From Rhodocyclales bacterium (GTDB lineage Bacteria; Pseudomonadota; Gammaproteobacteria; Burkholderiales; Rhodocyclaceae): 64,000 nt of DNA. The position numbers and the translations under genes were made by a program. A model generated the notes under the pieces. The model was not told where the DNA came from and did not search any database. It worked only from the letters and a program-made list of their open reading frames with translations. This document shows positions 43,102-63,350 of this stretch, one piece after another; positions within the stretch are counted from its first letter, which is position 1, and each line of letters begins with the position of its first letter. The stretch spans positions 1 through 64,000 of the forward strand of contig JACPUD010000126.1 of the NCBI GenBank assembly GCA_016192435.1. Direction: 5' to 3'.

Positions 43102-43463
43102 GGGGGCGACATGGCTTCGACATGGGTGACAAAGCATGCAGGGCATACCGAGGATCCGGGTACCTCGTAAATCCATCTGGAAAGTACTAACTGCCAACGA
43201 CGAGCGTTTCGCTCTAGCCGCTTAACAGCGGCTGGCTTCCGAACTGGTTTGCTTCTGGGCCAGGTAGCGCAAGCTACATCGGAATCATATACAGGAGATA
43301 AGGCTGTGCGGAGTCGCGATGCACAGTTCGAAAATCCAGCGAATCGCCTGCAACCAGCCTGTCCGTCGGCGTGTTGCGGGTCAAATCAAATGACGCGACT
43401 AAGTATGTAGAACTGTATGTGGCGCACTTATGGACGCGGGTTCAATTCCCGCCGCCTCCACCA
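43102..43463 (+). ncRNA. ssrA: Transfer-messenger RNA (tmRNA)
   Basis: 362 bases. The 5' end GGGGGCGACATGG and the 3' end CGCCTCC-ACCA form a 7-pair acceptor stem with one G-U pair. The T-arm reads GGACGCGGGTTCAATTCCCG and CCA is encoded. The resume codon and tag reading frame lie at 43193-43225 and encode ANDERFALAA followed by TAA, so the complete tag with the tRNA-charged alanine is AANDERFALAA, typical of betaproteobacteria. With SmpB it rescues stalled ribosomes and marks the product for proteolysis. The 3' end is a common phage attachment site and a prophage follows directly. Confidence 0.97.
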
Positions 43464-44582: not shown

Positions 44583-45065
44583 TCAGGCCTCGCTCTGGCT
44601 GGTTTCCGCGCTGCCGATCTGCAGCGGCACGGACGGGATATGCACATCGACCGGCCAGCGGTAGCCGGTCACGCGGCCCTGCGGGAAGGCCTTGACGCTC
44701 ACACTGTCGCCCTGGTTACCACCCAGCACCAGCAGCTTGCCACCTTCATCGCGGCCGACCACGAAGCCGACATGCCCGCCACCCTCGCGGCTGAACACCA
44801 CGATGCAGCCATGCGCGGGGCCGTCGAGCCGCACGCCCCACTTGAGATAGCTGGCCGCGGACTCGAAGCGGCTGCTGCGAATGCCGGCGCGCTCCAGGCA
44901 GGCGCCGACGAAGGCCGCGCACCACGGCACCTCGTCGGACTGGATGCCACTGCGCTTGATCGCGCGCCACATGGCCAGGATCTCGGGCGCGTGTTGCGGG
45001 CCGGGAATTTCTTCCAGCCCTACCAGCGGGCGGGCGATGGCCAGCCATTGCGGATCGATGATCAT
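44583..45065 (-). CDS. Endolysin-like NlpC/P60-type peptidase (TIGR02594 family)
   Basis: 160 residues from ATG 45065, overlapping the previous stop (ATGA). WLAIARPLVGLEEIPGPQHAPEIL is the TIGR02594 N-terminus. The catalytic cysteine is in EVPWCAAFVGACLE and the histidine in GGGHVGFVVG. Position between holin-like genes and spanins supports a role as the phage peptidoglycan hydrolase. No signal peptide is present, so it needs the holin for export. Confidence 0.85.
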   Translation of the reverse strand: MIIDPQWLAIARPLVGLEEIPGPQHAPEILAMWRAIKRSGIQSDEVPWCAAFVGACLERAGIRSSRFESAASYLKWGVRLDGPAHGCIVVFSREGGGHVGFVVGRDEGGKLLVLGGNQGDSVSVKAFPQGRVTGYRWPVDVHIPSVPLQIGSAETSQSEA

Positions 45066-45683: not shown

Positions 45684-46001
45684 TTAGCGGCAATGCCCGC
45701 CGAATTCGAACGGGTCCAGCCAGTTGGCACATAGATACCTGGCAACGCCCGCACGCCATCCTTCGGCCCGCTTCAGTCGCCCACATTTCTGCGATAACGT
45801 CGCATCCGGCGTGATGCCGAGCGCGAGGCCGGCGGTCCAGTTGAGAGCGACGTCGAGCAGCCAGCCGGCGGCGACCACCGCAGCGCCGGCGGCCTTGACT
45901 TCGGGCCGCAACGTGGGCCAGGTGGCGCGCAGCGCGGTGTAGGCGAGGTACAGCACCCACATCAGCGGGATCGCACTGACGAGGACCAGGGCGGCGGTCA
46001 T
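45684..46001 (-). CDS. Conserved small phage membrane protein
   Basis: 105 residues from ATG 46001, which overlaps the upstream stop (ATGA). Two hydrophobic segments (LVLVSAIPLMWVLYLAYTAL and VKAAGAAVVAAGWLLDVALNW) are followed by a soluble tail with three cysteines ending in LDPFEFGGHCR. It sits at the head of the lysis cassette, and a role in lysis timing is possible but unproven. Confidence 0.6.
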   Translation of the reverse strand: MTAALVLVSAIPLMWVLYLAYTALRATWPTLRPEVKAAGAAVVAAGWLLDVALNWTAGLALGITPDATLSQKCGRLKRAEGWRAGVARYLCANWLDPFEFGGHCR

Positions 46002-46675
46002 TGCAGTTGCTCCTTCAGCGCCTGTATTCGATCGTCGAAGTCCTTGAACTTCTTCCAGCTCTTCGCGGCCTCGGGGGCGGCGTCGCCCAGGGTCACGGCA
46101 AGCGCATAGACCTGGTCGAGGGTGTAGCCGATGGCGGCGGCGTCTTCGGCGACGGACTTTTTGACCATGTCGCGCACTGGGCGCGGCAGCAGTTCCTTGG
46201 ATTCGAGCGCCTGAATTTGCGCCAGGATCGCCGCGTTGGCTTCGGCCACCGCAGCCACCGGCGGCACGAGCGCGGCCTTCTGGTCGCGGCCCCAGGCGCG
46301 GCACTCTTCGGCGTAGGCGTGGTAGGCCTCGTAGTCGGCGCTACGGGCGTTGCGCAGCAGCTTGAGTTCGTCGCCGGTGCTGTAGCGCTCGCCGATCTTC
46401 ACGGCGACCATGTGCTCGATCACAAAGGCCAGCGGGCTGGCGTCGAGGAGGGTCGCGCGCAGGGTCGCGTCGGGCGTCACGGCCTGGATGCTCGCGGCGA
46501 TCTCCGCCGCCTGCTCGGCGGGCAGCACGGCGCCGTCGGGCAGGCTGACGTAGGTGATGCCGCCGATCGTGGCGATCTCCTGCCCGAGCGGCTGGCCGGC
46601 CGCGTCACGCGGCAGACTGAGTTCGCGGGTGACCAGCGCATCGATATATTTTCGGTAGCTGATGAGCGAGGGCAT
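45998..46675 (-). CDS. Unknown prophage protein directly after the DGR reverse transcriptase
   Basis: 225 residues from ATG 46675, overlapping the last 71 bases of the reverse transcriptase gene in another frame. It begins MPSLISYRKYIDALVTRELSLP and has long predicted helices rich in Ala and Glu, a SADYEAYHAYAEECRAWGRDQKAA segment, and a C-terminal half with KELLPRPVRDMVKKSVAEDAAAIGYTLDQVYAL. No family is recognised. The overlap suggests coupled translation with the RT, so it may be a tail-fibre accessory/assembly protein or a DGR-linked factor; neither is shown. Confidence 0.65.
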   Translation of the reverse strand: MPSLISYRKYIDALVTRELSLPRDAAGQPLGQEIATIGGITYVSLPDGAVLPAEQAAEIAASIQAVTPDATLRATLLDASPLAFVIEHMVAVKIGERYSTGDELKLLRNARSADYEAYHAYAEECRAWGRDQKAALVPPVAAVAEANAAILAQIQALESKELLPRPVRDMVKKSVAEDAAAIGYTLDQVYALAVTLGDAAPEAAKSWKKFKDFDDRIQALKEQLQ

Positions 46676-47627
46676 GGTGATGCTCCTTGATGGTGGCCAG
46701 CATGTGCTGCAGCGAGTGGGTGCGGCGGGCGTGGCCGAGCACGGACACCGCGCTTTGCATCCGAGCGCGCGCCAATGCCTGGCGGAAGGTGTAGAGGCTG
46801 TGACGGCGCACGAAGCGCTTGCTGGCCCATGTGCGGTAGCCGACGAAGTTGATGCCGCGCGAGACGCGCGCCAGGGTGGATTTCGACAGCTCCAAGTGCA
46901 AGCGCCTGGTGATGAATTCCACGATGCGCGTCTTGGCCACCAGCAGCGCCTCGCGTGACTCACCGAAGAGAATGAAGTCATCGACATAGCGGCAATAGCG
47001 CTTGATGCCCAGCTCGCGCTTGATGAAGTGATCAAGCGGGTTGAGGTAAATCAGCGCGTAGAGCTGGCTCAGCAGGTTGCCGATCGGGATGCCGATGGGC
47101 TCGCCGTGGTCGGCGAACTGCATCATCAGATCCACGAAGCGGCGGTCCTTGATCCTTTTCTCGATCAGCCGGCGCAGGGTCGGTCGGTCGATGCGATAGA
47201 AGAACTTGCGGATGTCCAGCTTCAGTGTGTAGCTGTCGCGCGGCACGGCCTGCAGCGCAGCCTGCGCGTAATCGGCGGCCTTGTGCGTGCCGAATCCGAC
47301 GCGGCAGGCGAAGGATTGATCGATGAACGTCCGCTCGAAGATCGGGCCGGCGACGGCATAGATAGCGTGCTGCACCACCAGATCGCGAAAGGCCGGCGCG
47401 AAGATGCGGCGCGGCTTGGGCTCGAAGACCATAAAACTATAGTAGGGCCGCGGCCGGTAGCTGCCGTCCGCCAGTTCTTGGTGCAGTGCATCCAGGTTGC
47501 TGGCCAGGTGCGTCTCGAACTTGAAGCAGGCACGCTTGCCGTGCTTGTGGCGCGCAGCCGCATGAAACGCCGCCAGCAGCGCCTTGGGCGTAAATGCCTT
47601 TTCGTACAGGAATCCGATGCGCTTCAT
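46605..47627 (-). CDS. DGR reverse transcriptase
   Basis: 340 residues from ATG 47627, with AAGG about 9 bases upstream. Palm motif A is TLKLDIRKFFYRID (residues 134-147). Motif B is GIPIGNLLSQ (179-188), with SQ where retroviral and group II intron enzymes have SP, the hallmark of DGR RTs. The catalytic YVDD is at 214-217 in CRYVDDFILF. Thumb-like basic helices follow. There are no maturase, endonuclease or integrase domains. It would copy the TR RNA with errors at adenines and deliver the cDNA to the VR in the tail-fibre gene. It lies 153 bases after the TR. Confidence 0.93.
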   Translation of the reverse strand: MKRIGFLYEKAFTPKALLAAFHAAARHKHGKRACFKFETHLASNLDALHQELADGSYRPRPYYSFMVFEPKPRRIFAPAFRDLVVQHAIYAVAGPIFERTFIDQSFACRVGFGTHKAADYAQAALQAVPRDSYTLKLDIRKFFYRIDRPTLRRLIEKRIKDRRFVDLMMQFADHGEPIGIPIGNLLSQLYALIYLNPLDHFIKRELGIKRYCRYVDDFILFGESREALLVAKTRIVEFITRRLHLELSKSTLARVSRGINFVGYRTWASKRFVRRHSLYTFRQALARARMQSAVSVLGHARRTHSLQHMLATIKEHHHALAHQLPKIYRCAGHPRTQSAA

Positions 47628-47780
47628 GTCACGAGACCTTCGAGCGCAACATAGCGCCTACCAGAATCGCGGAAGCCCGCCGATTTCGCCGCAGCTCGAC
47701 TGCTGATACCGCTGCGCGCCGGAAAGCGTCTCCCTTGATTCCACTGCGATCTGTAACCGATCCGTGAGGTGAAATCGAGT
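47628..47780 (-). other. Spacer between TR and RT gene
   Basis: 153 bases downstream of the TR. The TR sense frame runs on through here, but it has no counterpart in the tail-fibre protein. In characterised DGRs this spacer forms part of the structured RNA that primes template-directed cDNA synthesis. No clear long hairpin was identified by eye; the RNA role is inferred from arrangement. Confidence 0.4.
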
Positions 47781-47892
47781 CCGCGCGGAACCCCACGTTG
47801 TTGTTGGAGTTCGTCCGCACATTGTTGAGATTCAACGTCCACACCCCGGCGTTCGACGAGTTGTTCCAGTTGCCGCCTGAGATCGGGCACAT
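47781..47892 (-). repeat. DGR template repeat (TR)
   Basis: 112 bases directly after the avd stop. It matches the variable repeat at 48335-48446 at 95 positions. All 17 mismatches fall on adenines of the coding (minus) strand TR. It is rich in AAC codons: nine of the ten altered codons are Asn codons or the Thr codon ACG at the sites that vary, with one silent TCA/TCG change. The end matching the 3' end of the VR is GC-rich and unchanged for 17 bases. It is the donor sequence copied by the reverse transcriptase and itself stays unchanged. Confidence 0.95.
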
Positions 47893-47893
47893 G

Positions 47894-48304
47894 TTAAGAC
47901 GCCTCCCGTGTTGCCAACTGCCGATCGACGACGATCCAGCCGCCGATCATCCTGCCCAACTCATCCACCAGCCGCGACAAGGCCAGGTAACGATGCTCGC
48001 CTGCTGCTGCCGGGGATTTCTGCTCGCGCTTGCCATCCTTGAACTCGAAGTAGCCCAACTCGAACGACAGGCGAACCAGCATGCGCAGCTTCTCGTGTTC
48101 GACATCAAGACTGGAAAGCGCGGTCTTCTTGTGATAGCGCTTCTGCGCCTCCACGATGAAGCCATACACCGCATAGGCCGTGCGCCGGATTTCCAGCGCG
48201 AGGCCGTACTTTTCGTGTTTCGGAAAGTGGTTCAGATGAATGTTCATCAGCTTGGCGAATTCCACGAATTTGCGGTCCAGCTTGGCTTCGTCATGGAGCC
48301 CCAT
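47894..48304 (-). CDS. avd: DGR accessory variability determinant (Avd-like)
   Basis: 136 residues, basic. It shows the four-helix-bundle pattern of bAvd: HLNHFPKHEKYGLALEIRRTAYAVYGFIVEAQ, then LDVEHEKLRMLVRLSFELGY, and the terminal helix YLALSRLVDELGRMIGGW with the typical GrxxGGW ending. Avd pentamers bind the RT and template RNA and are required for mutagenic homing in Bordetella phage BPP-1. Its stop codon is 1 base from the TR. The start lies 17 bases after the tail-fibre stop. Confidence 0.88.
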   Translation of the reverse strand: MGLHDEAKLDRKFVEFAKLMNIHLNHFPKHEKYGLALEIRRTAYAVYGFIVEAQKRYHKKTALSSLDVEHEKLRMLVRLSFELGYFEFKDGKREQKSPAAAGEHRYLALSRLVDELGRMIGGWIVVDRQLATREAS

Positions 48305-48322
48305 CGCTATCGCTCAGGGCTC
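48296..48322. repeat. Inverted repeat just downstream of the VR
   Basis: GAGCCC at 48296-48301 pairs with GGGCTC at 48317-48322, with a 15-base loop that itself contains CGAT repeats. It spans from the tail-fibre stop to the avd start, 12 bases past the VR. In BPP-1 a hairpin or cruciform after the VR improves target recognition. The loop here is longer, so this is only a candidate. Confidence 0.35.
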
Positions 48323-49967
48323 AGAGATACAAGGCCGCGCGGAACCCCACGCTGCCGGTGGAGCCCGCCCGCACATCGGCGAGATTCAACGTCCACACCC
48401 CGGCGCCCGACGAGCCGTTCCAGCCGCCGCCCGAGATCGGGCACATTTCGTTCGGTTTGTAGTCGTAGAAAATGTCGTTGCCGAAAGCATTGGTACCGCC
48501 GTCGCCCGTGGTCAGCATACCGCCGACGCCGGCCCAGTTCCAGGCATTGCCGCTGGTCGCTTCGCTGAATACCTGCGTTGCCGCTCCGTAGCTGATGGAG
48601 CGATCAGCGCCGGTCTCGCGCCAGACTTGGTAGCTGGTACCGAGATCGTCATACAGCGCAGCGATGCCGGTCGCGCCCCACAGGTCCGTTGCCAGCGTAT
48701 TGCTGCCGGTCACGTTCTTCATGGTCGCGCTGGTCTTGAGGATGTAGAGGTTCGTGCCGTTGCTGGTCAGGCCCGGCGTGATCTCCCATACCAGGCCGTT
48801 GAGGTCGGCCACGCCACTGGCCTGACCGTTATGCGTGGATTTCGCCAGCGTGCTGGCGCTGCCTGTCTTGCCGACGCCGAGATAAGTGCCGTTGCCGTCA
48901 TACGTCCAGGTGACGGTGGCGTCCTGTGCGTCGCTCAGGGCGTTGTTGTTATTGCCCTTGGGGAAGTTGTTGGTCGCGTGCCACCAGGCGCAGTAGGTGG
49001 TGTTGGTGCTGGCCCGCGCGTGCGCGTAGGACAGCAGCGCCAGCGCCGAAAAAATGAAGCGCGAGCTGCAGAAGAAGTTGGCGCCGCGCGTCTTGGCAGA
49101 GGCGAGCGCGCCGCTGTAGTTCAGCGCCGGCGCGCCGGTCAGTGAATTGAATTTCGCGGTGGCCAGCGTGCCGCGCTGGGCGCTGGTGAGGACGATGCCG
49201 TTGGCCAGGCTCGATGCGATGCCGCCGTTGTTGCTGCACAGGTATTTATCGACGAAGACGCCGCGCTGCACCGCGCCGCCGTCGTAGAAGGCCCGGTGCA
49301 GGGCGTAGCCGGCCGCGTTGGCCGCGGCCACGTCCGCGAAGAACGACTCCGGCTTGATCAGCACTTCGTTGAGCGCGACGCCATTGGCGCCGGTGCCCCA
49401 CTTGTAATAGAAGGCCGGAATCCACACCATGACACTGCCGTCGCTGTACTGGTAGTTGCCGTAGTTGGCCGAGGCGAGGTCGTTGTAGCCGGACATCGCG
49501 CCCATGCCGGCCGGCAGCGCGGTCGGGCAGATGCCCACGCCGAAGCCCTGCGCGCCTGGGGTGCCGATCGCGTTGATGGCTGCGGCGGCGAGGAGTGCGA
49601 TGGCGGCGGAAACGGCGGCGGCGGTTTCCGAGGCCAGCGCGGCGGCCGCCGCGGCTTCGGCGGCGACGCGGTCGGCGTCGGCCAGGGCGGCCTGGGCGGT
49701 GGCGATGCCGGCTTGCGCGGTGGCGGTGGCGGCCTCTGCACCGGCCGCGCCTGCAGCAGCTTCGGCGGCCCCTTGCGCGTCTTCCGCCCCTTGTTGCGCA
49801 AGCTCGGTGGCGAGCCGGTCAGCGGCGGCCTGTGCAGCGCTTGCCGATGCGGCGGCAGCGCTCGCGGCGGCGCTGACCACCGCGGGCCGATTGGTGGCCA
49901 CGATCGCCGGCTCGGCGACGGTGACGCGGGTGACATCCTCGGTGATATTGACGACGATCTGGGGCAT
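48321..49967 (-). CDS. Tail-fibre/receptor-binding protein, DGR target
   Basis: 548 residues with AAGGTG upstream. Residues about 30-130 are almost pure Ala with Glu/Gln/Ser, a stalk-like coiled coil. GTPGAQGFGVG links to a globular part (about 145-548) containing GSVMVWIPAFYYKW, KYLCSNNGG and WEITPG, like formylglycine-generating-enzyme/C-type-lectin folds used by DGR targets. The C-terminus NEMCPISGGGW...GFRAALYL carries the variable repeat (residues 508-544) with the family GFR motif. Observed variable residues are 515, 518, 521, 530, 531, 534, 535, 537, 538 and 539. It probably forms the adhesin tip of the phage tail. Confidence 0.9.
   Translation of the reverse strand: MPQIVVNITEDVTRVTVAEPAIVATNRPAVVSAAASAAAASASAAQAAADRLATELAQQGAEDAQGAAEAAAGAAGAEAATATAQAGIATAQAALADADRVAAEAAAAAALASETAAAVSAAIALLAAAAINAIGTPGAQGFGVGICPTALPAGMGAMSGYNDLASANYGNYQYSDGSVMVWIPAFYYKWGTGANGVALNEVLIKPESFFADVAAANAAGYALHRAFYDGGAVQRGVFVDKYLCSNNGGIASSLANGIVLTSAQRGTLATAKFNSLTGAPALNYSGALASAKTRGANFFCSSRFIFSALALLSYAHARASTNTTYCAWWHATNNFPKGNNNNALSDAQDATVTWTYDGNGTYLGVGKTGSASTLAKSTHNGQASGVADLNGLVWEITPGLTSNGTNLYILKTSATMKNVTGSNTLATDLWGATGIAALYDDLGTSYQVWRETGADRSISYGAATQVFSEATSGNAWNWAGVGGMLTTGDGGTNAFGNDIFYDYKPNEMCPISGGGWNGSSGAGVWTLNLADVRAGSTGSVGFRAALYL
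48335..48446 (-). repeat. DGR variable repeat (VR) in the tail-fibre gene
   Basis: 112 bases covering codons 508-544, 12 bases before the stop codon. Compared with the TR, 15 A-to-G and 2 A-to-C changes (coding strand) and no other differences are seen. The last 17 bases before the 3' boundary are unchanged and GC-rich, the position expected for the initiation-of-mutagenic-homing (IMH) element. Past that point VR and TR diverge at once. The variation changes 10 residues and introduces no stop. Confidence 0.95.
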
Positions 49968-51701: not shown

Positions 51702-52606
51702 GTCAGTCCTTCGATTTCAATGGCGCACAGAGAGGCGCCGGGATAGGCAATGTCGATGTCGAAGTCCTTGTAGAACCCGTAGATCATCGTGGCGGCGTGG
51801 ATGTCGGTGCCGATATACACGGCGGGCGTGGCGCGGTAGCTGGCGAGGATGGTCTGCAGCTCGCTGGTCAGCCCAGAATCGACCCACAGCGAGAAGCTGC
51901 CGCGCTTGCTGAATGCGCGCTCAAGAATGGTGTAGTTGCCGAAATCGTCCTGCGTCTTCACGCTGTAATCGCGGATGCCGATCTTCGCTCCGTACTGCGT
52001 GCCGCCGATCTCGCGTGCCATGCCCAGAATGCACTCGCCGATAGCTGCGGTGCCGCCGGTGTCGGTCGCGGTAATGGCGATCGCCGCGCCCAGGTAGCGC
52101 GGCAGATCGCTCAGATTGAAATCCACCTTGCGCACGATCGGCTCGAAAAAATAGCTGTACCAATCCTGAATGCCGCTGTCGCTGACCAGGCTCACCGTCT
52201 CGTCATAGACCACGCCCTCGGCGGCATCGGTCATCGTCACATGGACGCTGGCGGCGGACACATTCAGCAACACCACGCTATCCACCACCGCGGCGAGCGT
52301 CACCACCACGGCGATGCTGTCGGCCGCCGAAGACTGCGTGCCGACCAGGGCATCGAACATCCGCCAGCGGTTCGTCGCGCCGAAATCCTGCCACCACACC
52401 GGGTTGGCCGGATCCGCCTCGCCGGCCGGATCGTGGCCAGTGTTGCCCGCCTGCAGACTCTTGTAGATGCGGTGCGTGGCGGCCTTGATACAATAGGCCG
52501 CGAGGCCATAGGTCGTGCCGCCGGCCCACTCGCCATAGTCGTTTTCGGCAATGCTGCTGCTGGTCAGCGTCGCATCGGTCACATTGACAGGCCGAACGAT
52601 TCTCAT
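51698..52606 (-). CDS. Distal tail protein with carbohydrate-binding-type module
   Basis: 302 residues from ATG 52606, overlapping the tape-measure stop (ATGA). It contains EWAGGTTYGLAAYCIKAATHRIYKSLQAGNTGHDP, the same module type as the next gene, then a long beta-rich region with DFNLSDLPRYLGAAIAITATD and YSVKTQDDFGNYTILERAFSKRGSFSLWVD. Its place right after the tape measure suggests a distal-tail/baseplate hub role comparable to lambda M or L. No defined family is recognised. Confidence 0.6.
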   Translation of the reverse strand: MRIVRPVNVTDATLTSSSIAENDYGEWAGGTTYGLAAYCIKAATHRIYKSLQAGNTGHDPAGEADPANPVWWQDFGATNRWRMFDALVGTQSSAADSIAVVVTLAAVVDSVVLLNVSAASVHVTMTDAAEGVVYDETVSLVSDSGIQDWYSYFFEPIVRKVDFNLSDLPRYLGAAIAITATDTGGTAAIGECILGMAREIGGTQYGAKIGIRDYSVKTQDDFGNYTILERAFSKRGSFSLWVDSGLTSELQTILASYRATPAVYIGTDIHAATMIYGFYKDFDIDIAYPGASLCAIEIEGLT

Positions 52607-55600
52607 ACCAACACCCGCTCCGCCGGCATGCCGTCGCCGTCCCACCTCTCCAGCACCTTCGCCGTCTTGCTCGAAACGCGCACCATGGCCGCATTCACCG
52701 CGCGCAGATCAGCGCGGAGCGCATCGATCGCCTGCGTCACCTGGCTCATGTCCAGCAGCGCCTTGCTGTCACGATTCGAATACACATGCGCCGGCGGCAT
52801 GTAGGCCAGCTCCGAGCCACGTTCGCCCACAATCGCCCAGCCGCCGCCATGGTCGCCGCCATCGGCATACGCCGGCATGATTCCCGTCTTCTGCGCGAAC
52901 AGATAATCCGCCCGCGTCTTGAACCGCTCCGTGCCCAAAGCCCTGGCCGCCTCGTCCGCCGATGCAGTGATACCGGCGAACGCATCGGATACCGACAGCA
53001 GCGTCGCGTACATCGTTCGCCCAGCCTCGGTCGCCAGGTTCTGCCCCTCCACTAGCGACCGGAACTGCTCCCGCGTCGCCGGCACGTCCGCAATGCCGAT
53101 CGCCCGCAACGTGCTTTCAATGCTTCCGCGCATATCGGCGGTACGCTCTCGGTCGCTGTGAAAATTCCTGTAGTAGCTATCGAAAACACTGGTCGCGCCG
53201 CCGACGCCACCCAGCGACTGGATCAGCGAATCGCGGGCCTTGAGGTTGTTGCTGCCGAAAGCGGTGGCCGCATCCTTACCCATCAGCGCGGCCATCTTGT
53301 TGGTCAGCACGAATTCCTGCGTAATGCGCGCCGCGGTTTGCGCCAGCGATTCGCCGCTGGCCTGGAACTCATTCAGGTTCGGAATGATCTTGACCGCGAT
53401 CGATTCGCCCAGGGCCGCGAAGGCTTGCTCCATCGACGAAAAATAGCCTTGAATATGCCCGTTGCTCGGCGTGCCGTCGCGACGGCTATCGACGGTCGCC
53501 GAATCGATCACCGATGGATCGACGCCAAACATCTGGGCCATCGCACGGCCCTGGGCGAAGGTGACCGCGATCTGTTGATTGATCGCGGCGATCTGTGCCG
53601 CCGAAAGGTTGGCTGAGTCCGCCCACCAGCCCTCGCCCGAGGTCGGCCCGGCCGACATCATGGACGGCGCGCCCGTGGCATCCGAGTTCTGCACGGCGAA
53701 GACGCCGGACTTGGCCAGCCCCAGCTCGAAGCCGGTCGCCGACGTGTTGTTGTGCGGATCCTCGCCGCCGCCATCGAAGAGGCCCAACATCGACCCGACA
53801 GCCAGTGCCGCGCCGAGATAGGGCAGCGCGGTACCGAGCGCGGATAACGCGGTGCCGCCGACTGCCTCGCCGATGCCGAGCGCATCAATGTAGGCGGTGG
53901 ACAGCCCCAGCGACGCGCCCGTCTCCGACAAGGCGAAGGCGGTATAGGCCGAACTCCCGCCGAGCAAGCTGTTGGCGCTGCTGCCCATCGAAAACAGATC
54001 GCCGATACCGCCGCCGCCGAAGCCACCAGCCCCCCCGAACCCGCCGCCGCCTGCGCCGGAAACACCCAGCAGCGAACCAGCCGCCCCCATCACCGGATTC
54101 ACCACCGCCTGCACCGCGATCTTGAATGCCGCCGTCTTCAGTGAATTCTTGATTGAATCGACGAAGGCCTTGCCGCCATCCTTGCCGTTCTCGAACCCGC
54201 GCATCAGCGCATCTGTCAGCGACCGATCCACCTCATCGGTAAAGCGCTTCCACTCCTTTGCCTGGTCATCGATCGCCTTCTTTGCTGCCTCCTTCTCGTC
54301 GATGCCATGCAGCGCATCGCGCAACCGCATGCGCGCCGCGATTTCCTGTTCCAGCGCCTCCAGTTCCTTCTCGTGGCCGTCCAGCCCGGCATACATCGCC
54401 CGCCGCTCTTCCAGCCGCGCGATCGTGGTGCTCTCGATCTGAGCGCGGGTCATGCCGTAGGTCTGCAGCTCGAACTCTGCCGCCGTCGCCTTGTCCTCCA
54501 ACGCTGCCAGCACCTTGCGCTGCGCCTCGGCCGCCTGCTCGGCCGCCTTCGCCTGCTCCAGCATCGTCTTGCGCAGCGCTTCGGTCTTCTGGTTCTCCTG
54601 ATCGACCGCCAGCAGGGTCTCCAGCCGCGTCGTCAGCGTCACCTTCTGCGAGTCGTTGAGCTTGAGGTAGCCGCCCTGCAGGTCCGTCATCAACTTCAGC
54701 GCGAACTTCTGCGACTCGCTCAGCCGGTCTGTCGATTCAGCCTCCGCCGCCAGCGACGACGTCCGCTCGTCAATGCCCTTCAGCAGCGACGAGAAAAGAT
54801 CTGATTTTGTCGCGGCTTTTCTACTGTGTACCCCGGATTCCAGCGTCGCCGCCGCAGCGTCGGTGTTTGCGACCGGAGGCAGCATTCCATTTCCGGAATA
54901 ATCTCCTTTCTCAAACAGCCGGCGAGCGCGGGCGGCATATAAATCGGTCGGCAGTTTATTAGCCAACTTGCGTGCATCAAGATCAGCAAAAAATGCCTGA
55001 TTCTCTGCTTTGAGCGCAGCGTAAGCCTGTTTCTTTTCATCGAGAGATCCTTTGGCGGCAATCGCTCCCAAGGCACCGACGGTCTCGATGTTTTTCCCAA
55101 TTCGTTCAAACGGGATGGACACTTCCACCAGGAGGAACTTGAGCAAGGTCAGTTCGTCCATAACGTGCGCCGTCGCCATGACAACGCTCTTGCTCCAATC
55201 AGCCAGCGTTCCGTCTTTAGAAAACCGCTCAAATGTGGGCAACAGATCTTCATTGACTGCCTTGACCAGCGGATACACGCCTTCGGTGGCCGCCTGCTTG
55301 AAGTTGACCCCAATCAACGTCAGGCGATCATTCGCCTTCTGCGCCTCCGGCGACAGCTTCTCCAGCGCCGCGCCGTAGCCGTCCGTCGCTTCCTTGATCT
55401 CAAGCAGCGCCTTGCTGCCCATCACCAGCGTCGGCAGCAGTTGCTGGCCGATGCCGCGCCCGAACAACTTGGTCGCCAGGTCCAGCCGCGCCACCGGATC
55501 CGTCATGCCGGCGAACAGGTCGGAAAGCTGCAGGAATGCCTTGTTCGTGTCCTTCGTGTCGATGCCAGCCTGGCGCAGCGCCGCACCGTGCTCCACCATG

Positions 55601-55923
55601 TGCTTCGACAACATGCGCGTTCCGGCCGCCATCGATTCGAGGGTCGCGCCGTTCATCTCGGCGGCCGTCTTCCAGTACGTCAGGTCCTTGATCGACATGG
55701 CCATGCGAACGGACATCTCGTCCATCGAATCGGCCAGATTGACCTGCTCCTTCCACAGTCCGATGGTCTGCTGCGCCATCTCGCCGATGGCGCCGATGGC
55801 GACCTGCGTCGCCGCCGCAAATACCCCGATCGTCGCCCCCAGCCCGGCCATGCTGGTCTTGACCGAATTGATCCCCTCGCCGGTCTGGTCTTCGGCAGTG
55901 ATGATGACCCGGGTATTACTCAC
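52603..55923 (-). CDS. Phage tail tape measure protein
   Basis: 1106 residues from a GTG at 55923 with GGGAG upstream, the largest phage gene, placed after the tail chaperones. N-terminal hydrophobic helix (SMAGLGATIGVFAAATQVAIGAI), then long helical repeats with LEERRAMYAGLDGHEKELEALEQEIAARMRL coiled coil, hydrophobic Gly-rich segments (about 620-690), and a C-terminal MPAYADGGDHGGGWAIVGERGSELAYMP motif common in tape measures. It sets tail length and helps DNA ejection. A segment around 54790-55150 is clearly more AT-rich than the rest, suggesting mosaic exchange. Confidence 0.9.
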   Translation of the reverse strand: MSNTRVIITAEDQTGEGINSVKTSMAGLGATIGVFAAATQVAIGAIGEMAQQTIGLWKEQVNLADSMDEMSVRMAMSIKDLTYWKTAAEMNGATLESMAAGTRMLSKHMVEHGAALRQAGIDTKDTNKAFLQLSDLFAGMTDPVARLDLATKLFGRGIGQQLLPTLVMGSKALLEIKEATDGYGAALEKLSPEAQKANDRLTLIGVNFKQAATEGVYPLVKAVNEDLLPTFERFSKDGTLADWSKSVVMATAHVMDELTLLKFLLVEVSIPFERIGKNIETVGALGAIAAKGSLDEKKQAYAALKAENQAFFADLDARKLANKLPTDLYAARARRLFEKGDYSGNGMLPPVANTDAAAATLESGVHSRKAATKSDLFSSLLKGIDERTSSLAAEAESTDRLSESQKFALKLMTDLQGGYLKLNDSQKVTLTTRLETLLAVDQENQKTEALRKTMLEQAKAAEQAAEAQRKVLAALEDKATAAEFELQTYGMTRAQIESTTIARLEERRAMYAGLDGHEKELEALEQEIAARMRLRDALHGIDEKEAAKKAIDDQAKEWKRFTDEVDRSLTDALMRGFENGKDGGKAFVDSIKNSLKTAAFKIAVQAVVNPVMGAAGSLLGVSGAGGGGFGGAGGFGGGGIGDLFSMGSSANSLLGGSSAYTAFALSETGASLGLSTAYIDALGIGEAVGGTALSALGTALPYLGAALAVGSMLGLFDGGGEDPHNNTSATGFELGLAKSGVFAVQNSDATGAPSMMSAGPTSGEGWWADSANLSAAQIAAINQQIAVTFAQGRAMAQMFGVDPSVIDSATVDSRRDGTPSNGHIQGYFSSMEQAFAALGESIAVKIIPNLNEFQASGESLAQTAARITQEFVLTNKMAALMGKDAATAFGSNNLKARDSLIQSLGGVGGATSVFDSYYRNFHSDRERTADMRGSIESTLRAIGIADVPATREQFRSLVEGQNLATEAGRTMYATLLSVSDAFAGITASADEAARALGTERFKTRADYLFAQKTGIMPAYADGGDHGGGWAIVGERGSELAYMPPAHVYSNRDSKALLDMSQVTQAIDALRADLRAVNAAMVRVSSKTAKVLERWDGDGMPAERVLV

Positions 55924-58446: not shown

Positions 58447-59481
58447 TCAGGTGCGCTTCGCCGACTGCAGCATCGCCGGCCGGGTGCACATGAATAGCGG
58501 GTACGAATACACCTCCAGATCGACGAAGGCATTGCGCTTTTCGTCCGGGATGACCATGCCATACACCGGCAGACCCGGCGTATTGACGTAATCGAAGGTC
58601 TCGGCCGGGCTGTAGGCCACCTGGAAAACGCCGTTGCCATTCACCGGGAAGAACTTCGCCTTGTCAGTGCCAACAGCCACCGTCGAGCCGTCGTCCGTAC
58701 CGCGGTAATTGATCCAGGTGATGCCGCCGTAGTTGAACGTCTCGTAGGCCAGCCCGTCGCGCAATTGGCGCGCTTCCTGAGTGTTCAGGTAGGTCTGACG
58801 CACTTCCGTATGTGCGGTCAGATCGTCCCAGAAGGCATCGCCGCACAAGGCCATGACGTAGGTACGGCCCGGAATCCAGCCACCCGAAGCCGCCTTCTGC
58901 ATCTGACGCACCACCTGGGTGCACTTTTTGCGCACCGCGCCCGAAGCCGGCGACGCCGCATCGAGGTCGAAATCGATCTCGCTCGCCGCGCTGATGCCGA
59001 ACTCGTCGTAGAAGTTGTAGATCACCGACGCGTCAGCATCGGTCACGATGCCCTGGATCGCGCCCAGCGCCATGTTCTCCCAGGTGAGCTCGACGTCACG
59101 CATCAGGCCGGTCGGCCCGTTCATGCGCTGATTGACTTCATCCACCACCTGCATCAGCTCGGTTTCCGAGCCGAAGGCGCGGATGCTCTGGATCTCGTCG
59201 GCGCGCAGGCTGTCATGCTTGGCGATGCGGCGAGTGCGAAAGTCGCGAATCTTGCGCTTCTCGCGATCCGCCTCGGCCAGCGGCGCGCCGCGCTCGGATG
59301 TCTGGATCAGCGACAGCGTGCCGTTCTTCTCTTCCACCGACACGCCGACGGTACGCACCGGCTTCGGCGTGAAGAGCTTGAGCCCGGTGATCAGGCCCGG
59401 CTGAAAAGGCACATTGTTCAGCGCCTCGGTGATCGAAACCATCCCGAACGCGGACGACTTGAAGATGTCAAGAGTTGCCAT
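58447..59481 (-). CDS. Major capsid protein (lambda gpE family)
   Basis: 344 residues with a strong AAGGAG leader. It starts MATLDIFKSSAFGMVSITEALNNVPFQPG and has KLFTPKPVRTVGVSVEEKNGTLSLIQTSERGAP, TRRIAKHDSLRADEIQSIRAFG and AFFDVNTPGL-like ETFDYVNTPGLPVYGMVIPDEKRNAFVDLEVYSYPLFMCTRPAML at the C-terminus. These are typical of the phage major capsid protein E family with the HK97 fold. Follows the decoration protein gene by 12 bases. Confidence 0.93.
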   Translation of the reverse strand: MATLDIFKSSAFGMVSITEALNNVPFQPGLITGLKLFTPKPVRTVGVSVEEKNGTLSLIQTSERGAPLAEADREKRKIRDFRTRRIAKHDSLRADEIQSIRAFGSETELMQVVDEVNQRMNGPTGLMRDVELTWENMALGAIQGIVTDADASVIYNFYDEFGISAASEIDFDLDAASPASGAVRKKCTQVVRQMQKAASGGWIPGRTYVMALCGDAFWDDLTAHTEVRQTYLNTQEARQLRDGLAYETFNYGGITWINYRGTDDGSTVAVGTDKAKFFPVNGNGVFQVAYSPAETFDYVNTPGLPVYGMVIPDEKRNAFVDLEVYSYPLFMCTRPAMLQSAKRT

Positions 59482-60381: not shown

Positions 60382-60777
60382 TTACTTGACCGCACGCAAC
60401 TTGGCGTTGCTGCGGTTCCACACGGCGGCGGCTTCCGCCTGCGGATTCGGATCGCCGGCGGCAGCCGCTTCGCTGCCCACGGCCGGATTGGTCAGCTTCG
60501 CCATGCCGGCGGCCAGCGCGCTGGCCTGCCCGGCGGCTTCGGCCGCTTCGACGGCCGAGGCCGCCAGCATTGCCTTGGCGTCATCGACGCCCATCGCCGT
60601 GTTGAAAGCCAGGTGCGCGGCCAGCTTGCTGCGCCCCTTCGCTTCGTCGCAGGTCTGGATGTCACGGATGCGCGCCTGCATCTGCGTGGCGCCGGAGGCT
60701 TGCGCCGCAGCGACGTGTGCGGCCAGTTGCTCGGCAGTCACGGCTTCCGCCGCCGCCGCTTGAGCTTGATTGCTCAT
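60382..60777 (-). CDS. Nested in-frame scaffold protein (Nu3-like)
   Basis: 131 residues starting at an internal in-frame ATG (60777) of the protease gene. A strong AAAGGAG at 60786-60792 stands 8 bases before it, which has no purpose for the long product. The product MSNQAQAAAAEAVTAEQLAAH... is Ala-rich and helical, like the lambda Nu3 scaffold, which is made in exactly this way from the 3' end of gene C. Confidence 0.78.
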   Translation of the reverse strand: MSNQAQAAAAEAVTAEQLAAHVAAAQASGATQMQARIRDIQTCDEAKGRSKLAAHLAFNTAMGVDDAKAMLAASAVEAAEAAGQASALAAGMAKLTNPAVGSEAAAAGDPNPQAEAAAVWNRSNAKLRAVK

Positions 60778-61713
60778 GGTTGCGACTCCTTTCGGGAGGT
60801 TGGTGCGGACGCCTTTGCCAGGATGGCCGCCGTTGGAATTCCCCGTCGGCTTCGAGACCGAATTGACTTCGTCCTCGAACGCCTTCAGGGTTTCTTGAAA
60901 ACTCATGATCGAATCCACCAGGCCGGCATCGATTGCCGCCTGCCCCGTCAGCACGCCCGCATCCAGCGCGCGCACCGCCGCCGGATCGAGGTTCCGCATC
61001 TGCGCCACGTAGGAAACAAAGTGATCGTTCAGGCCATCCACCATCGCCTGCATCTCGGCCCGGGCCGGATCGGACAGCGGCTCATGCGGCGTGCCGTAGT
61101 TCTTTTTCGCGCCGGCGTGAATCGCCGTGTAGGTGATGCCCGCCTTCTCGTTCGCCTTCGAACGGTCCTGATGCAGCGCAATCACGCCGACAGACCCGAC
61201 GCGTCCGGTCTTCGTCATCGTCACGCGATCGGCCGCGCACGCCAGCAGGTAGCCGCCCGACAGCGCCTTCTCATTCACGCTGGCCCAGACCGGCTTTTTG
61301 CCAGCGCGGATTTTTTCGCCCAGCGCGAACGCGCCATCGGCCTGCCCGCCGTTCGAATCGTCTTCCAGCAGGATGCCCTTGACATCCGGGTCGGCATCGG
61401 CGGCATCGAACTGCCGCTCTATTTCCGTGTAGCTCGTCAGCCCCGACATTGCATCCATCTGCGAGCCGCGATGCACCATCGTGCCGATGATCGGCAGCAC
61501 CGCCACACCCGCCTCCGTCACCGTGTAAGGCTTGCCCGCAAAGCGCGGCGCGGCATACGCCGCCGCCATCGGTGCCGGCCGATCGCCTTCGGTCAGCGCC
61601 GTCGGGTTGCCGCTTGCATACGCGCGAAATACCGACTCGATCACCGCCGCCTTCTCGGGATCGAGTAGCAGCGGGATGCCGTAAAGCTGGGTGGCGATCA
61701 GGGGATAGCGCAT
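60382..61713 (-). CDS. S49-family capsid maturation protease (gpC-like)
   Basis: 443 residues from ATG 61713; a GTG at 61722 is an alternative and neither has a strong ribosome site. It has the SppA/ClpP-like fold: VAVLPIIGTMVHRGS, VKGILLEDDSNGGQADGAFALGEKI and the catalytic serine in EKALSGGYLLACAADRVTMTKTGRVGSVGV. C-terminal to residue 290 the sequence becomes Ala-rich and helical and includes a nested scaffold start. In lambda, gpC processes the portal region and its 3' part encodes the scaffold Nu3. The same layout is seen here. Confidence 0.9.
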   Translation of the reverse strand: MRYPLIATQLYGIPLLLDPEKAAVIESVFRAYASGNPTALTEGDRPAPMAAAYAAPRFAGKPYTVTEAGVAVLPIIGTMVHRGSQMDAMSGLTSYTEIERQFDAADADPDVKGILLEDDSNGGQADGAFALGEKIRAGKKPVWASVNEKALSGGYLLACAADRVTMTKTGRVGSVGVIALHQDRSKANEKAGITYTAIHAGAKKNYGTPHEPLSDPARAEMQAMVDGLNDHFVSYVAQMRNLDPAAVRALDAGVLTGQAAIDAGLVDSIMSFQETLKAFEDEVNSVSKPTGNSNGGHPGKGVRTNLPKGVATMSNQAQAAAAEAVTAEQLAAHVAAAQASGATQMQARIRDIQTCDEAKGRSKLAAHLAFNTAMGVDDAKAMLAASAVEAAEAAGQASALAAGMAKLTNPAVGSEAAAAGDPNPQAEAAAVWNRSNAKLRAVK

Positions 61714-61772: not shown

Positions 61773-63350
61773 TCACGCCGCTGCCGGCGCTGGTTTCGGC
61801 GCAGGCTTGCCGTCAGTCTTGGTGCCACCCGTCGTCTCGCCAGGCTTCACCGGCGCTTCCTTGTCGCTCGGGTAATCGCGCGCATTGGCCGGCGTCACCG
61901 GCACCTCGGGCAGCAGCCCGAGTTCCTTCATCTTCGCCTTCTCCGCCGCGCGCTGTTCCAGCACTTCTTCCCAGTCCTGGCCCTGCTCGGCGCACTCGGC
62001 TTCCAGCGTCGAAAGGTTCGCATCCATGCGAATCTTCGCCGCGTCGGCTTCCTTCACCGGATCGATCCAGCCGCGCCCGGGGCCGACCCAGCGGCAGCGG
62101 CAATACGCCGCCATGTTCTCGTAAAAGTCCGGCGCCTCCACCAACCCCAGATTCACCGCCTCTTCCAGCCACAGCTCGAACACCGGCCGCGCCCAGTAGG
62201 TCGAAATCCACTGCCGGCGCCCGCGAAAGAATCGCCAGGCCTCGATCAGCGCCGCTCGCGCCGACGAATAGTTCGTCCGCGAAAAATCCTTCATCAGCAG
62301 CTCGTAGGGGATGTTCAGTCCCGTCGCGATATGCCGGAAAATCGAGGTCACGAACGGATCGAAGGATCCGGACGGCCGCTGCGGCGAGAACCCCGCCAGC
62401 TTCTCGCCCAGCCCGAGCGGGATGATCTGGCCATCCTCCATCGTGATCGTCGAAAGCCCGCGCTCCGTCAGCGCGTCCGCGTATTCCGATCGCGCATCCT
62501 CGGAAGACGACAGCAGCTCCGCCACCGCCTCCGGCGACAGATTTGATTCCGTCAGCATCGCCACCTTGGCATTCACCACGGCGGCCTTCAGCTCTGCATC
62601 CGTGAAATCGCGCAGCACCTTGAACTGCCGCATCACCGATGCCAGCGACGGCTTACCCCGGCTCTGCCCCGCGCGCTCGCGGTCATGCACATGGATCACC
62701 CGGCGCCGGCCCCAATCGGTGAATGCCGGCACATATTCCCAGGTCAGCAAGTCCGCCGCCGACGCCATGCCGCGCTCGCCCGGGTGCGCGCGGCGAATGT
62801 GGTAGCCCTGCGGCGCCCCGTATTCATCGATCGCGATACCCTCGCGCAGCCGTGGCCCATTCGTGCGCCCCATCGGGTTCGACAGCCGTTCCGGCTCGAT
62901 CACCTGCAAGCGCAAGTTGAATCGCACGCCGGGGCGCGGCAGCCACAGCGGAAGCGCCAGGCCCTCGCCGTTCAGCCAGCCCGAGCGGAACACCTGAATC
63001 GTCAGCCCGGTAAAGTCCAGCGAGCGCCCCGCATCGCAATCCATCGCCTCGGACCATGTGCGCCACAGGCTCTCGACGCCCGTGCTCCACTCCTCGGCCC
63101 ATTCCTTGGATTTGCCCAGCAGCCGGTAATCCGGCGTCGATACCAGGCGCAGCCCGACGCCGATGACGTTGTCCGTCACCGTCTGCAGCGCGCCTTCGGC
63201 CACCCCGGAATTGCGTGTCAGGTCGCGCGAGCGCGCCGCCATCGTCTGCCGCTCGGGCAGCAGGTCGGCATCGGCCGATTGCACCAGCGGCTGCCAGCGC
63301 CGCATGTCCGGATGATCAAGCGACGCCGCCAGGTAAGCGCTGGTGTTCAC
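61773..63350 (-). CDS. Phage portal protein (lambda gpB family)
   Basis: 525 residues from GTG 63350, with AGGGGAGGG seven bases upstream; the frame stays open a little further. Lambda-type portal features are SRDLTRNSGVAEGALQTVTDNVIGVGLRL, FRSGWLNGEGLALPLWL, AFTDWGRRRVIHVHDRERAGQSRGKP, TGLNIPYELLMKDFSRTNYSSARAALIEAWRFFRGRRQW and a disordered Lys/Pro tail. It forms the dodecameric DNA gate at one capsid vertex and nucleates assembly. A 21-base GC-rich palindrome (63358-63378) overlaps its leader. Confidence 0.94.
   Translation of the reverse strand: MNTSAYLAASLDHPDMRRWQPLVQSADADLLPERQTMAARSRDLTRNSGVAEGALQTVTDNVIGVGLRLVSTPDYRLLGKSKEWAEEWSTGVESLWRTWSEAMDCDAGRSLDFTGLTIQVFRSGWLNGEGLALPLWLPRPGVRFNLRLQVIEPERLSNPMGRTNGPRLREGIAIDEYGAPQGYHIRRAHPGERGMASAADLLTWEYVPAFTDWGRRRVIHVHDRERAGQSRGKPSLASVMRQFKVLRDFTDAELKAAVVNAKVAMLTESNLSPEAVAELLSSSEDARSEYADALTERGLSTITMEDGQIIPLGLGEKLAGFSPQRPSGSFDPFVTSIFRHIATGLNIPYELLMKDFSRTNYSSARAALIEAWRFFRGRRQWISTYWARPVFELWLEEAVNLGLVEAPDFYENMAAYCRCRWVGPGRGWIDPVKEADAAKIRMDANLSTLEAECAEQGQDWEEVLEQRAAEKAKMKELGLLPEVPVTPANARDYPSDKEAPVKPGETTGGTKTDGKPAPKPAPAAA

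What the first reader, a model, noticed from the sequence alone, without database searches (positions are those of the whole stretch)
46605..49967. Complete diversity-generating retroelement in a prophage, targeting the tail fibre
Transcription order is tail fibre with 3' VR, Avd-like gene, TR, reverse transcriptase with the DGR-type LLSQ and YVDD motifs. All parts appear intact and tightly packed, and the order equals that of Bordetella phage BPP-1 (mtd-avd-TR-brt). Here the host phage has lambda-type head and tail genes, so a similar cassette sits in a different virion type. It predicts a phage with a self-diversifying receptor-binding tip in this betaproteobacterium.
Basis: partly seen in the sequence, partly recalled or inferred. 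Interest (0 to 1): 0.95.

Follow-up and report, generated by a model that had tools for sequence, protein, structure and literature searches.

The report
Prophage with two mutation-making retroelements
A bacterial virus sleeping in this bacterium's chromosome carries a complete gene cassette that deliberately scrambles the tip of what is probably its tail protein, and, about 35 thousand bases away in the same virus, a second unrelated cassette of the same kind that scrambles two small proteins of another sort.

Summary
On the minus strand, 49967-46605 is a complete diversity-generating retroelement (DGR): lectin-fold target with VR, Avd, TR, RT. TR and VR differ at 18 of 115 positions, all 18 at TR adenines (chance about 3e-14). 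The RT falls among DGR RTs but in a clade apart from BPP-1 Brt; only the layout is BPP-1-like. Near-identical relatives from metagenomes keep TR and flanks (nearly) constant while their VRs differ almost only at TR adenines, so the family is active in nature; this copy was not tested. The 150-nt TR-RT spacer is a covarying RNA found in 28 of 29 held-out relatives tested and not matched by Rfam.

The larger result lies outside the window. The cassette sits in a 51-kb lambda-headed prophage in ssrA (29-bp att repeats), which carries a second, unrelated DGR: RT 31% identical, different Avd, an Rfam RT-15 leader before its TR, and two small lectin-type targets in the presumed early region. Three metagenomic viruses (3 of 57 records looked at) also carry two DGRs; two RT queries found no public phage record (50,697) with two RT places. 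The first cassette alone is a new member of a known kind; the pair is a new variant. The small proteins' role is inference.

The parts
48321..49967 (-). DGR1 target: 548-aa putative tail-tip/receptor-binding protein; C-terminal 430 aa model as a C-type-lectin-fold DGR variable protein
   Evidence: weak PHROG tail hit, E 1.6e-4; pLDDT 89, pTM 0.92; TaqVP 5vf4 E 7e-16; lies after tape measure/minor tail genes and before a CHAP gene
48332..48446 (-). Variable repeat (VR), 115 bp, end of the target gene
   Evidence: 18 differences from TR, all at TR adenines; only VR of this TR in the held genome
48335..48351 (-). A-free, GC-rich 17-nt block near the VR 3' end, identical in TR (47781-47797): IMH-like retrohoming site (inferred)
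   Evidence: alignment; function inferred from recalled BPP-1 knowledge
47894..48304 (-). avd1, accessory variability determinant (136 aa)
   Evidence: bAvd 58.3 bits, PHROG 3206 82.3 bits
47778..47892 (-). Template repeat (TR), starts 1 nt after the avd stop codon
   Evidence: similar adjacency in many relatives
47628..47777 (-). 150-nt TR-RT spacer, conserved structured RNA (model R1 matches 47622-47793)
   Evidence: no Rfam hit to E 0.1
46605..47627 (-). RT1, DGR reverse transcriptase (340 aa)
43435..43463 (+). attL: last 29 nt of the tmRNA gene (43102-43463); identical copy at C127:94658-94686 = attR, outside the window
52603..55923 (-). Tape measure protein of the host phage
58447..59481 (-). 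Major head protein (PHROG 29)
60382..61713 (-). Head maturation protease (PHROG 53)
61773..63350 (-). Portal protein (PHROG 21)
44583..45065 (-). CHAP-domain protein, probable endolysin, on the far side of the cassette

Best explanation
The window holds a complete, probably working DGR of a temperate lambda-headed phage integrated in ssrA. TR RNA, with its structured 3' spacer, is copied by RT1 with Avd1; adenines are misread; the cDNA replaces the VR at the 3' end of the tail-tip gene at an A-free GC-rich 3' site, so progeny carry varied lectin-fold tips (retrohoming, misreading at A and receptor binding are inferred from DGR biology; the parts, the A-only TR/VR pattern and ongoing A-targeted VR change in near-identical relatives are shown). 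The same prophage carries a second, unrelated DGR (C127:84977-87814, plus strand) that diversifies two small lectin-type proteins in what looks like the early region, using a different RT, Avd and template RNA. The phage thus most likely varies two separate sets of binding proteins with two independent machines.
For: TR/VR 18 of 18 at A (2.8e-14). RT in the DGR part of the tree, own clade 100/100. Avd over the Pfam cut-off. Target fold: TaqVP DGR variable protein E 7e-16, then Mtd variants E about 1e-3. 98 of 114 RT1-related loci plus the window show an A-biased TR/VR pair; over 88 distinct pairs 1349 of 1429 mismatches are at TR A. In 39 locus pairs with RT identity printed as 1.000 and 0 differences in the 120-300 bases before the VR, 32 differ in VR, 29 of them by 6-22 positions. 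Spacer RNA: 96.6% of cells paired, covariation score 0.481 against 0.164 shuffled (0 of 500) and at most 0.095 when slid; found in 8 of 8 and 20 of 21 loci not used to build the model. Finder control: the annotated TR/VR of BPP-1 is recovered (18 of 22 mismatches at A). Prophage ends: exact 29-bp repeat, one copy the 3' end of ssrA; integrase 93376-94581. Second DGR: VRs 13 of 14 and 15 of 17 mismatches at TR A, bAvd 51.7 bits, RT, Lcl_C-type targets, Rfam RT-15 178.6 bits ending at the TR start. RT1 and RT2 31% identical, Avd1 and Avd2 without significant similarity.
Against: No reads, no second copy of this prophage, no expression data: activity of these two copies is not shown. The genome is a fragmented draft (148 contigs, 83% complete). 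The target has no Pfam hit and only a weak PHROG tail hit, so 'tail tip' rests on position and fold. Both Avds are under the NCBIfam Avd equivalog cut-off of 80 (74.6 and 57 bits) and no NCBIfam model names either RT a DGR RT. The window's VR is unusually A>G (15 of 18). A hairpin like BPP-1's behind the VR was not beyond shuffles (z 0.18). The spacer of the window sequence alone does not fold better than shuffles (z -0.44); the structure was counted on the alignment it was derived from, and one held-out locus of 29 (L112) is not found by the model.
Confidence: 0.88

Rival explanations
1. A decayed DGR: the TR/VR difference is a fossil and RT1 no longer works in this prophage.
For: No population data for this copy; no relative of this exact phage was found (closest RT 83% identical).
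Against: RT1, Avd1 and target are open; catalytic motif present; spacer RNA scores 149 bits, though the window is a training row; 0 of 18 TR/VR mismatches are at non-A positions, which decay would add.
Confidence: 0.08
2. The second RT cassette is not a partner but a passenger (chance neighbour), gained for unrelated reasons or belonging to another element.
For: It lies on the other strand 35 kb away; DGR2-type cassettes mostly occur alone (31 of 33 records with exactly one RT match, one with two, one with none).
Against: It is inside the att repeats. Three further viral records combine two DGRs, in three RT combinations.
Confidence: 0.12
3. Both DGRs serve receptor or surface binding: the small DGR2 proteins are minor virion or surface proteins rather than intracellular ones.
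For: Their fold is that of a surface adhesin domain (Legionella Lcl C-terminal domain); the remote RT2 relatives L194-L196 and L200 have 522-720-aa targets, more like virion fibres.
Against: In this prophage and in Magia, Haboob, Cruim01 and QDWS the RT lies near recombination, repressor, methylase or integrase genes as annotated (the LPPA56 record, names only a recombinase); the N-termini listed look unlike signal peptides (by eye, no predictor run).
Confidence: 0.4
4. RT1 is another kind of reverse transcriptase (group II intron, retron, defence RT) beside a fortuitous repeat.
For: RVT_1, PADLOC and NCBIfam RT models of other kinds match generically, under their NCBIfam cut-offs.
Against: A-only repeat, Avd, tree, PHROG 1423 and 8ub7 match.
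Confidence: 0.01

Closest known systems
Bordetella phage BPP-1 tropism-switching DGR (mtd-avd-TR-brt)
   Same: Gene order, TR abutting the avd stop, spacer of similar length (144 against 150 nt), single 3' VR in a lectin-fold protein
   Different: RT in another clade; target models closer to TaqVP than to Mtd; spacer RNA model does not hit BPP-1; lambda-type head genes; a second DGR present
Pseudomonas phage Bise DGR (OR683401)
   Same: Same RT clade (60% identity), same spacer RNA (73.4 bits), TR/VR 9 of 9 at A, target before avd
   Different: Contractile-tail phage by its annotation; one RT place only
Burkholderia phage Magia / Pseudomonas phages Haboob and Cruim01 / Shewanella phage QDWS DGR-type cassettes
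   Same: Same RT clade as RT2; near recombination, methylase or integrase genes; TR/VR with two VRs each in Haboob and Magia (not tested in Cruim01 and QDWS); Magia annotates a lectin-fold potential DGR target; Cruim01 annotates RT-15 between the ORF before and the RT
   Different: One RT place per record
Quimbyviridae gut phages (PMC8008677, passages read)
   Same: One phage diversifies a structural and a non-structural lectin protein
   Different: There a single DGR serves two VRs; here two unrelated DGRs each have their own TR, Avd and RT
Thermus aquaticus DGR variable protein TaqVP (5vf4)
   Same: Best structural match of the DGR1 target
   Different: 19% identity over the Foldseek alignment

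Membership tests
Diversity-generating retroelement | RT of the DGR group | tested here: met
   (47-row tree; outgroup of 3 rows presumed to be group II intron RTs from RVT_1 scores of 141-148 bits and a recalled motif; no retrons included)
Diversity-generating retroelement | TR/VR repeat whose mismatches are at TR adenines | tested here: met
   18 of 18
Diversity-generating retroelement | Accessory Avd protein | tested here: met
   Over the Pfam bAvd cut-off, PHROG 3206; under the NCBIfam equivalog cut-off (74.6 against 80)
Diversity-generating retroelement | VR in a C-type-lectin or Ig-type target | tested here: met
   Predicted fold
Diversity-generating retroelement | Adenine-mutagenic retrohoming observed | not testable with these tools
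   Seen only as population variation in relatives, not for this copy
Diversity-generating retroelement | IMH at VR 3' end and stem-loop behind it | tested here: inconclusive
   A-free GC-rich identical block present; hairpin not beyond shuffles
BPP-1-type (Brt/Mtd) DGR | RT sister to Brt | tested here: not met
   Brt groups with G061 tail RT (100/100), RT1 in its own clade (100/100)
BPP-1-type (Brt/Mtd) DGR | Order target-avd-TR-RT | tested here: met
BPP-1-type (Brt/Mtd) DGR | Mtd-family target | tested here: not met
   No Pfam hit; Mtd only at E about 1e-3 by fold
Rfam RT-15 (RF03018), for DGR2 | Score above the curated gathering score | tested here: met
   178.6 against 82 bits

The most novel reading that the evidence does not exclude
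Some temperate phages run two orthogonal DGRs for two different jobs: one re-aims the tail tip at changing receptors, the other continuously re-aims a pair of small early-expressed lectin-fold proteins at something inside or on the host cell (for instance a defence component or a rival phage), i.e. a hypermutating intracellular or lysogenic effector. The use of different RT clades, Avds and template-RNA folds keeps the two from crossing. In the second kind the Rfam RNA RT-15 is the 5' leader of the DGR template RNA, and the RT frame often runs through TR.
Probability: 0.3. Interest if true: 0.85.

Novelty: new variant of a known kind. Interest (0 to 1): 0.62.

Why it matters
Phage DGRs are mostly thought of as receptor-binding diversifiers. 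A phage that keeps a tail DGR and a separate DGR on small non-tail lectins makes the question 'what else do phages need to hypermutate?' testable by removing one cassette at a time. The two RNA results are useful by themselves: the DGR1 spacer is a covarying RNA, absent from Rfam 15 as searched, that goes with one RT lineage; and RT-15, an Rfam family, is placed here directly before the TR of a DGR, as the probable leader of its template RNA. Both give searchable markers and a basis for asking how a DGR tells its own template from another in the same cell.

Tried and rejected
Rfam on the DGR1 region: nothing up to E 0.1. Single-sequence folds of the spacer (z -0.44) and of the post-VR stretch (z 0.18): not beyond shuffles; only the alignment supports the spacer. 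PADLOC on the two RTs matched many generic RT models and gave no defence assignment; NCBIfam has no over-cut-off match for either RT or Avd. Considered and set aside: that the pair arose by recent duplication (RT1/RT2 31%, different clades, Avds unrelated); that RT1/Avd1 serves the second VRs (the genome searches with TR1 and TR2 do not find each other's repeats).

Limits and dropped rows. The RT1 scan kept the best 80 of 291 viral stretches. Only 24 of those 80 loci and 33 of the 54 RT2 viral loci were followed to their records, the longer contigs, and 13 of 34 genome loci; so the count of pairs is a lower bound, and the peptide-pattern scan missed the second RT of G003. In one search six of the 13 genomes have two or three RT matches; only those of G035 were tested for TR/VR. 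Tree: of 16 RT1 and 14 RT2 relatives chosen, L024, L109, L162, L180 and L191 fell out because the tblastn match runs past the natural stop near the C-terminus, and one outgroup row (L125) was dropped as wrong frame; two rows entered as outgroups were not: L206 is the same RT as L198, and L127 proved to be a DGR RT. The tree program warned of long branches. The spacer alignment used 45 of 73 distinct spacers of suitable length; 28 of the others, plus phage Bise, were then searched with the model: 28 of 29 found, several of them close to training rows. DGR2 pair L169/L174: one VR 17 of 18 at A, but the other place differs in flanks too (149 of 200) and was not comparable. A fourth structure-search library and pdb_via were not used.

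Literature: searches (DGRs; RT-15) in the held open-access library; some lists were capped (116: 15 of 34; 75: 15 of 217). No paper with two DGRs in one phage was seen; this is a statement about those searches and the passages read only. One search found no paper whose listing concerns RT-15 RNA. Weinberg et al. 2017, which I recall as the source of the RT-numbered RNA motifs, was not held and is cited from memory only.
Full report
WHAT IS THERE. The cassette is complete and open at the stated place, all on the minus strand: target 49967-48321, VR 48446-48332, avd 48304-47894, TR 47892-47778, spacer 47777-47628, RT 47627-46605. TR and VR align without gaps over 115 bp and differ at 18 places, each of them an adenine in TR (15 A>G, 3 A>C, 0 A>T). 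With 28 adenines in 115 bases the chance of 18 of 18 is 2.8e-14. Eight of the 12 changed codons are AAC in TR and become Gly, Ala, Thr or Ser codons; no stop arises. A search of the held genome with the TR finds no third copy.

THE PROTEINS. RT1 matches RVT_1 (57.6 bits) and PHROG 1423 (345 bits); among solved structures the best sequence match is 8ub7 (E 1.4e-52), a 'Reverse transcriptase' of 328 aa that I recall as the BPP-1 enzyme, ahead of group II intron RTs (E 6.7e-21 and weaker). NCBIfam has no over-cut-off match; its best, the group II model, scores 119 against a cut-off of 300. In a maximum-likelihood tree of 47 RTs rooted on three rows that I presume to be group II intron RTs, RT1 and 15 relatives, including Pseudomonas phage Bise, form one clade (100/100); BPP-1 Brt lies in another with the tail RT of virus G061 (100/100). 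Some rows have long branches and some deep forks are unresolved, so only these clade memberships are used. Avd1 passes the Pfam bAvd cut-off. The last 430 residues of the target, modelled with 55 relatives, give pLDDT 89 and pTM 0.92; the best solved folds are TaqVP, a DGR variable protein (E 7e-16), then the Mtd variants (E about 1e-3). That it is a tail-tip protein is inferred from fold, a weak PHROG tail hit and position between tail genes and a CHAP gene.

IS THE FAMILY ACTIVE? A scan kept 80 of 291 viral and all 34 genome loci with relatives of RT1. Of these 114, 98 (and the window) hold a repeat pair whose mismatches are at least 70% at adenines of the RT-proximal copy; 10 of the 16 misses begin less than 800 bases before the RT match, so their upstream part is largely missing. 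The same kind of search recovers the annotated TR and VR of BPP-1 (18 of 22 mismatches at A). Over 88 distinct pairs, 1349 of 1429 mismatches (94%) are at TR adenines; the per-base rate is 0.56 at A against 0.005-0.021 at the other bases. Among 44 pairs of loci with RT DNA over 95% identical, VRs differ at 517 places, 501 of them at TR adenines, while TRs differ at 6 in all. In 39 of the pairs the RTs are printed as 1.000 identical and the 120-300 bases before the VR do not differ at all; 32 of those 39 differ in VR. In 31 of the 32 all differences but at most one are at TR adenines; in one (L019/L020) the single difference is elsewhere. Pairs share members and are not independent. This shows adenine-targeted change going on in the family, not in this copy.

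THE TEMPLATE RNA. The spacer between TR and RT was aligned for 45 of 73 distinct members. RNAalifold finds 30 pairs in 7 helices, 17 with compensatory changes. Counted directly, 96.6% of cells pair, against 79.3% after shuffling; the covariation score is 0.481 against 0.164 (0 of 500 shuffles) and at most 0.095 when the partners are slid. The structure came from the same alignment, which favours it. An independent check: a covariance model built from it finds the TR-RT spacer in 8 of 8 loci with RTs 43-60% identical to RT1 that were not used to build it (L243 Bise, L091, L094, L095, L101, L102, L104, L109; 25.8-73.4 bits) and in 20 of 21 further unused loci, some of them close to training rows (31-147 bits; L112 is missed). 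In one search nothing else scored better than E 0.13, including BPP-1 and the DGR2-type loci. Rfam 15 has no match there to E 0.1.

THE SECOND DGR. The window is the first 64,000 bases of contig C127 (104,944 bases). A family search for RTs in the genome gave two places, both on this contig. The other is a second DGR on the plus strand (C127 coordinates): targets 84977-85588 (203 aa) and 85618-86001 (127 aa), avd 86022-86375, TR 86554-86665, RT core about 86696-87814. Its two VRs have 13 of 14 and 15 of 17 mismatches at TR adenines; one non-A difference, a G/A shared by both VRs, lies behind the last changed adenine, as expected of an IMH/IMH* difference, and the second VR has one more (C/T) near its end. 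Apart from matches of E 0.1 or worse, no further copy of this TR is in the held genome. Both targets match the Lcl C-terminal domain family (44.8 bits over, and 25.3 bits under, the cut-off of 34.9). A relative's target (L154) models as that fold (pLDDT 83.5; 8q4e E 4.9e-5).

ONE PROPHAGE. An exact 29-bp repeat, the last 29 nt of the tmRNA gene, stands at 43435-43463 and again at 94658-94686; an integrase lies at 93376-94581. Between these att sites are terminase, portal, protease and major head genes of lambda type, tape measure and minor tail genes, a CHAP protein, and both DGRs. The element is 51.2 kb. DGR2 lies in the plus-strand block of genes before the integrase: a DUF2303 gene before it, a DndC-like PAPS-reductase (PADLOC DndC 110 bits) and a C5 DNA methylase behind it. 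That this is the early region is inferred from position and neighbours.

TWO UNLIKE MACHINES. RT1 and RT2 are 31% identical, and Avd1 and Avd2 show no significant similarity. RT2 belongs to another clade, with phages Magia, Haboob, Cruim01 and QDWS, and Bacteroides phage F2 further out. The RNA layout differs: DGR1 has TR right after avd and a 150-nt structured spacer behind; DGR2 has about 180 nt before TR and about 30 nt between TR and the RT core. That leader is Rfam RT-15 (RF03018, 178.6 bits, gathering 82), ending at the TR start. RT-15 stands in the same place, to within a few bases, in 12 of 12 and 7 of 11 further RT2-family loci that I scanned, 23 of 54 in all; the four misses (L194, L195, L197, L200) are among the remote RTs, 39-49% identical. 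The Cruim01 record already carries an RT-15 annotation. The mutation spectra also differ (A to C/G/T: 0.31/0.52/0.17 in the DGR1 family, 0.15/0.50/0.35 in the DGR2 family), but selection and base composition are not separated from the enzyme.

HOW COMMON IS A PAIR? Of 24 viral records with an RT1 relative, two have a second RT; of 33 with an RT2 relative, one: 3 of 57, or 3 of the 28 that are at least 40 kb long. In all three both cassettes have their own A-biased TR/VR. G003 (record of L007) repeats the present pair (RT1 81%, RT2 72% identical) with few other shared genes in the 20 kb read. G004 (record of L013) has a DGR1-type cassette and, beside a DUF2303 gene as here, a third kind of DGR whose 227-aa target is an FGE-sulfatase-type lectin fold (16 of 17 at A). 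G061 (record of L192) has a DGR2-type cassette and a Brt-like DGR whose target has the Mtd second domain (78 bits). So a tail-type DGR plus a small-lectin DGR occurs in three combinations of RT lineages, which is hard to ascribe to one accident. A further candidate turned up in checking: contig C6 of genome G035 (Aliarcobacter, the genome of L105) has two RTs 27 kb apart on one strand, and both stand beside A-biased repeats (15 of 17 and 14 of 14); whether they share a prophage was not tested. In 50,697 public phage records, RT1 finds 145 records and 145 places, RT2 113 and 113: no record has two RT places at E 1e-5 with these two queries. In the RT2 family, cassettes with two VRs are the rule (34 of 55; three VRs in 7, one in 11, none found in 3), and near-identical pairs of viruses differ in one VR at 14 places, all TR adenines, while another VR is unchanged (L159/L160, L186/L192).

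COMPARISON WITH WHAT IS PRINTED. One DGR serving a structural and a non-structural target is described for Quimbyviridae (PMC8008677, passages read), and one DGR with two targets for gut phages with tentaclins (PMC10743442, start of abstract and passages). Two or more DGRs in one cellular genome are described (PMC3521204, PMC8867640, PMC4372165, passages). Roux et al. 2021 (PMC8144416, abstract and passages) mention non-structural targets. PMC7981956, PMC4159848, PMC11792537 and PMC12386605 (passages or searches inside) say nothing of two DGRs in one phage. I saw no such paper in eight searches of the open-access library; subscription papers and preprints are not covered.

VERDICT. The finding is right. 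Taken alone it is a well-formed new member of a known kind. Together with the second, unrelated DGR in the same prophage, the recurrence of such pairs, and the two template-RNA results, it is a new variant that deserves attention. What the small lectin proteins bind is unknown; an intracellular or lysogenic role is the bolder reading and is not excluded.

Noticed in passing
G000:C127:84977-87814 (L001, L120), outside the window: A second complete DGR in the same prophage, with two small lectin-type targets; described in the report.
   Followed up: yes
C127:86359-86556 (L120:11359-11556): Rfam RNA RT-15 ends at the TR start of DGR2 and of 19 of 23 scanned relatives: probably the 5' leader of a DGR template RNA.
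   Followed up: partly
C127:86243-86696 and RT2-family loci: The RT2 frame is open through the TR in 45 of 49 cassettes, and in 17 of 49 no in-frame ATG/GTG/TTG lies between TR end and the RT core: the RT may start inside or before the TR, or use an unusual start codon.
   Followed up: partly
L239:4368-8110 (record of L013): A third kind of DGR with a 282-aa accessory protein that has only a weak bAvd-like C-terminus (20.3 bits, under the cut-off) and an FGE-sulfatase-type target next to DUF2303.
   Followed up: partly
G035:C6:119399-147142 (L127, L105): Two RTs 27 kb apart on one contig of an Aliarcobacter genome, both beside A-biased TR/VR pairs: perhaps another two-DGR element.
   Followed up: partly
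window:48332-48446: The window's VR is strongly A>G (15 G, 3 C, 0 T) compared with its family (0.52/0.31/0.17), making the variable face Gly-rich; cause unknown.
   Followed up: no
G244:C2:10420-12990: Two RT1-like RT matches (41% and 40% identity) lie about 0.8 kb apart in a genome of the same family.
   Followed up: no
G182:C1 (641910, 2715436, 3144047): Three matches with the same score and length to RT1 in one genome of the same family, perhaps copies of one mobile RT element.
   Followed up: no
L105 and L108: RT DNA 99.8% identical between genomes labelled Aliarcobacter and Sulfurimonas, with VRs differing at 18 places, 17 at TR adenines: recent transfer or a shared phage.
   Followed up: no
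window:46605-46675: The RT1 gene end overlaps the start of the next ORF (45998-46675, 225 aa, no Pfam match), which is partly kept behind the DGR in L236 and L240 (51% and 48% identity).
   Followed up: no
C127:68160-68897 and 88226-89449: Two PAPS-reductase-family genes in the prophage, one DndC-like, beside methylases: a possible DNA-modification or counter-restriction set.
   Followed up: no
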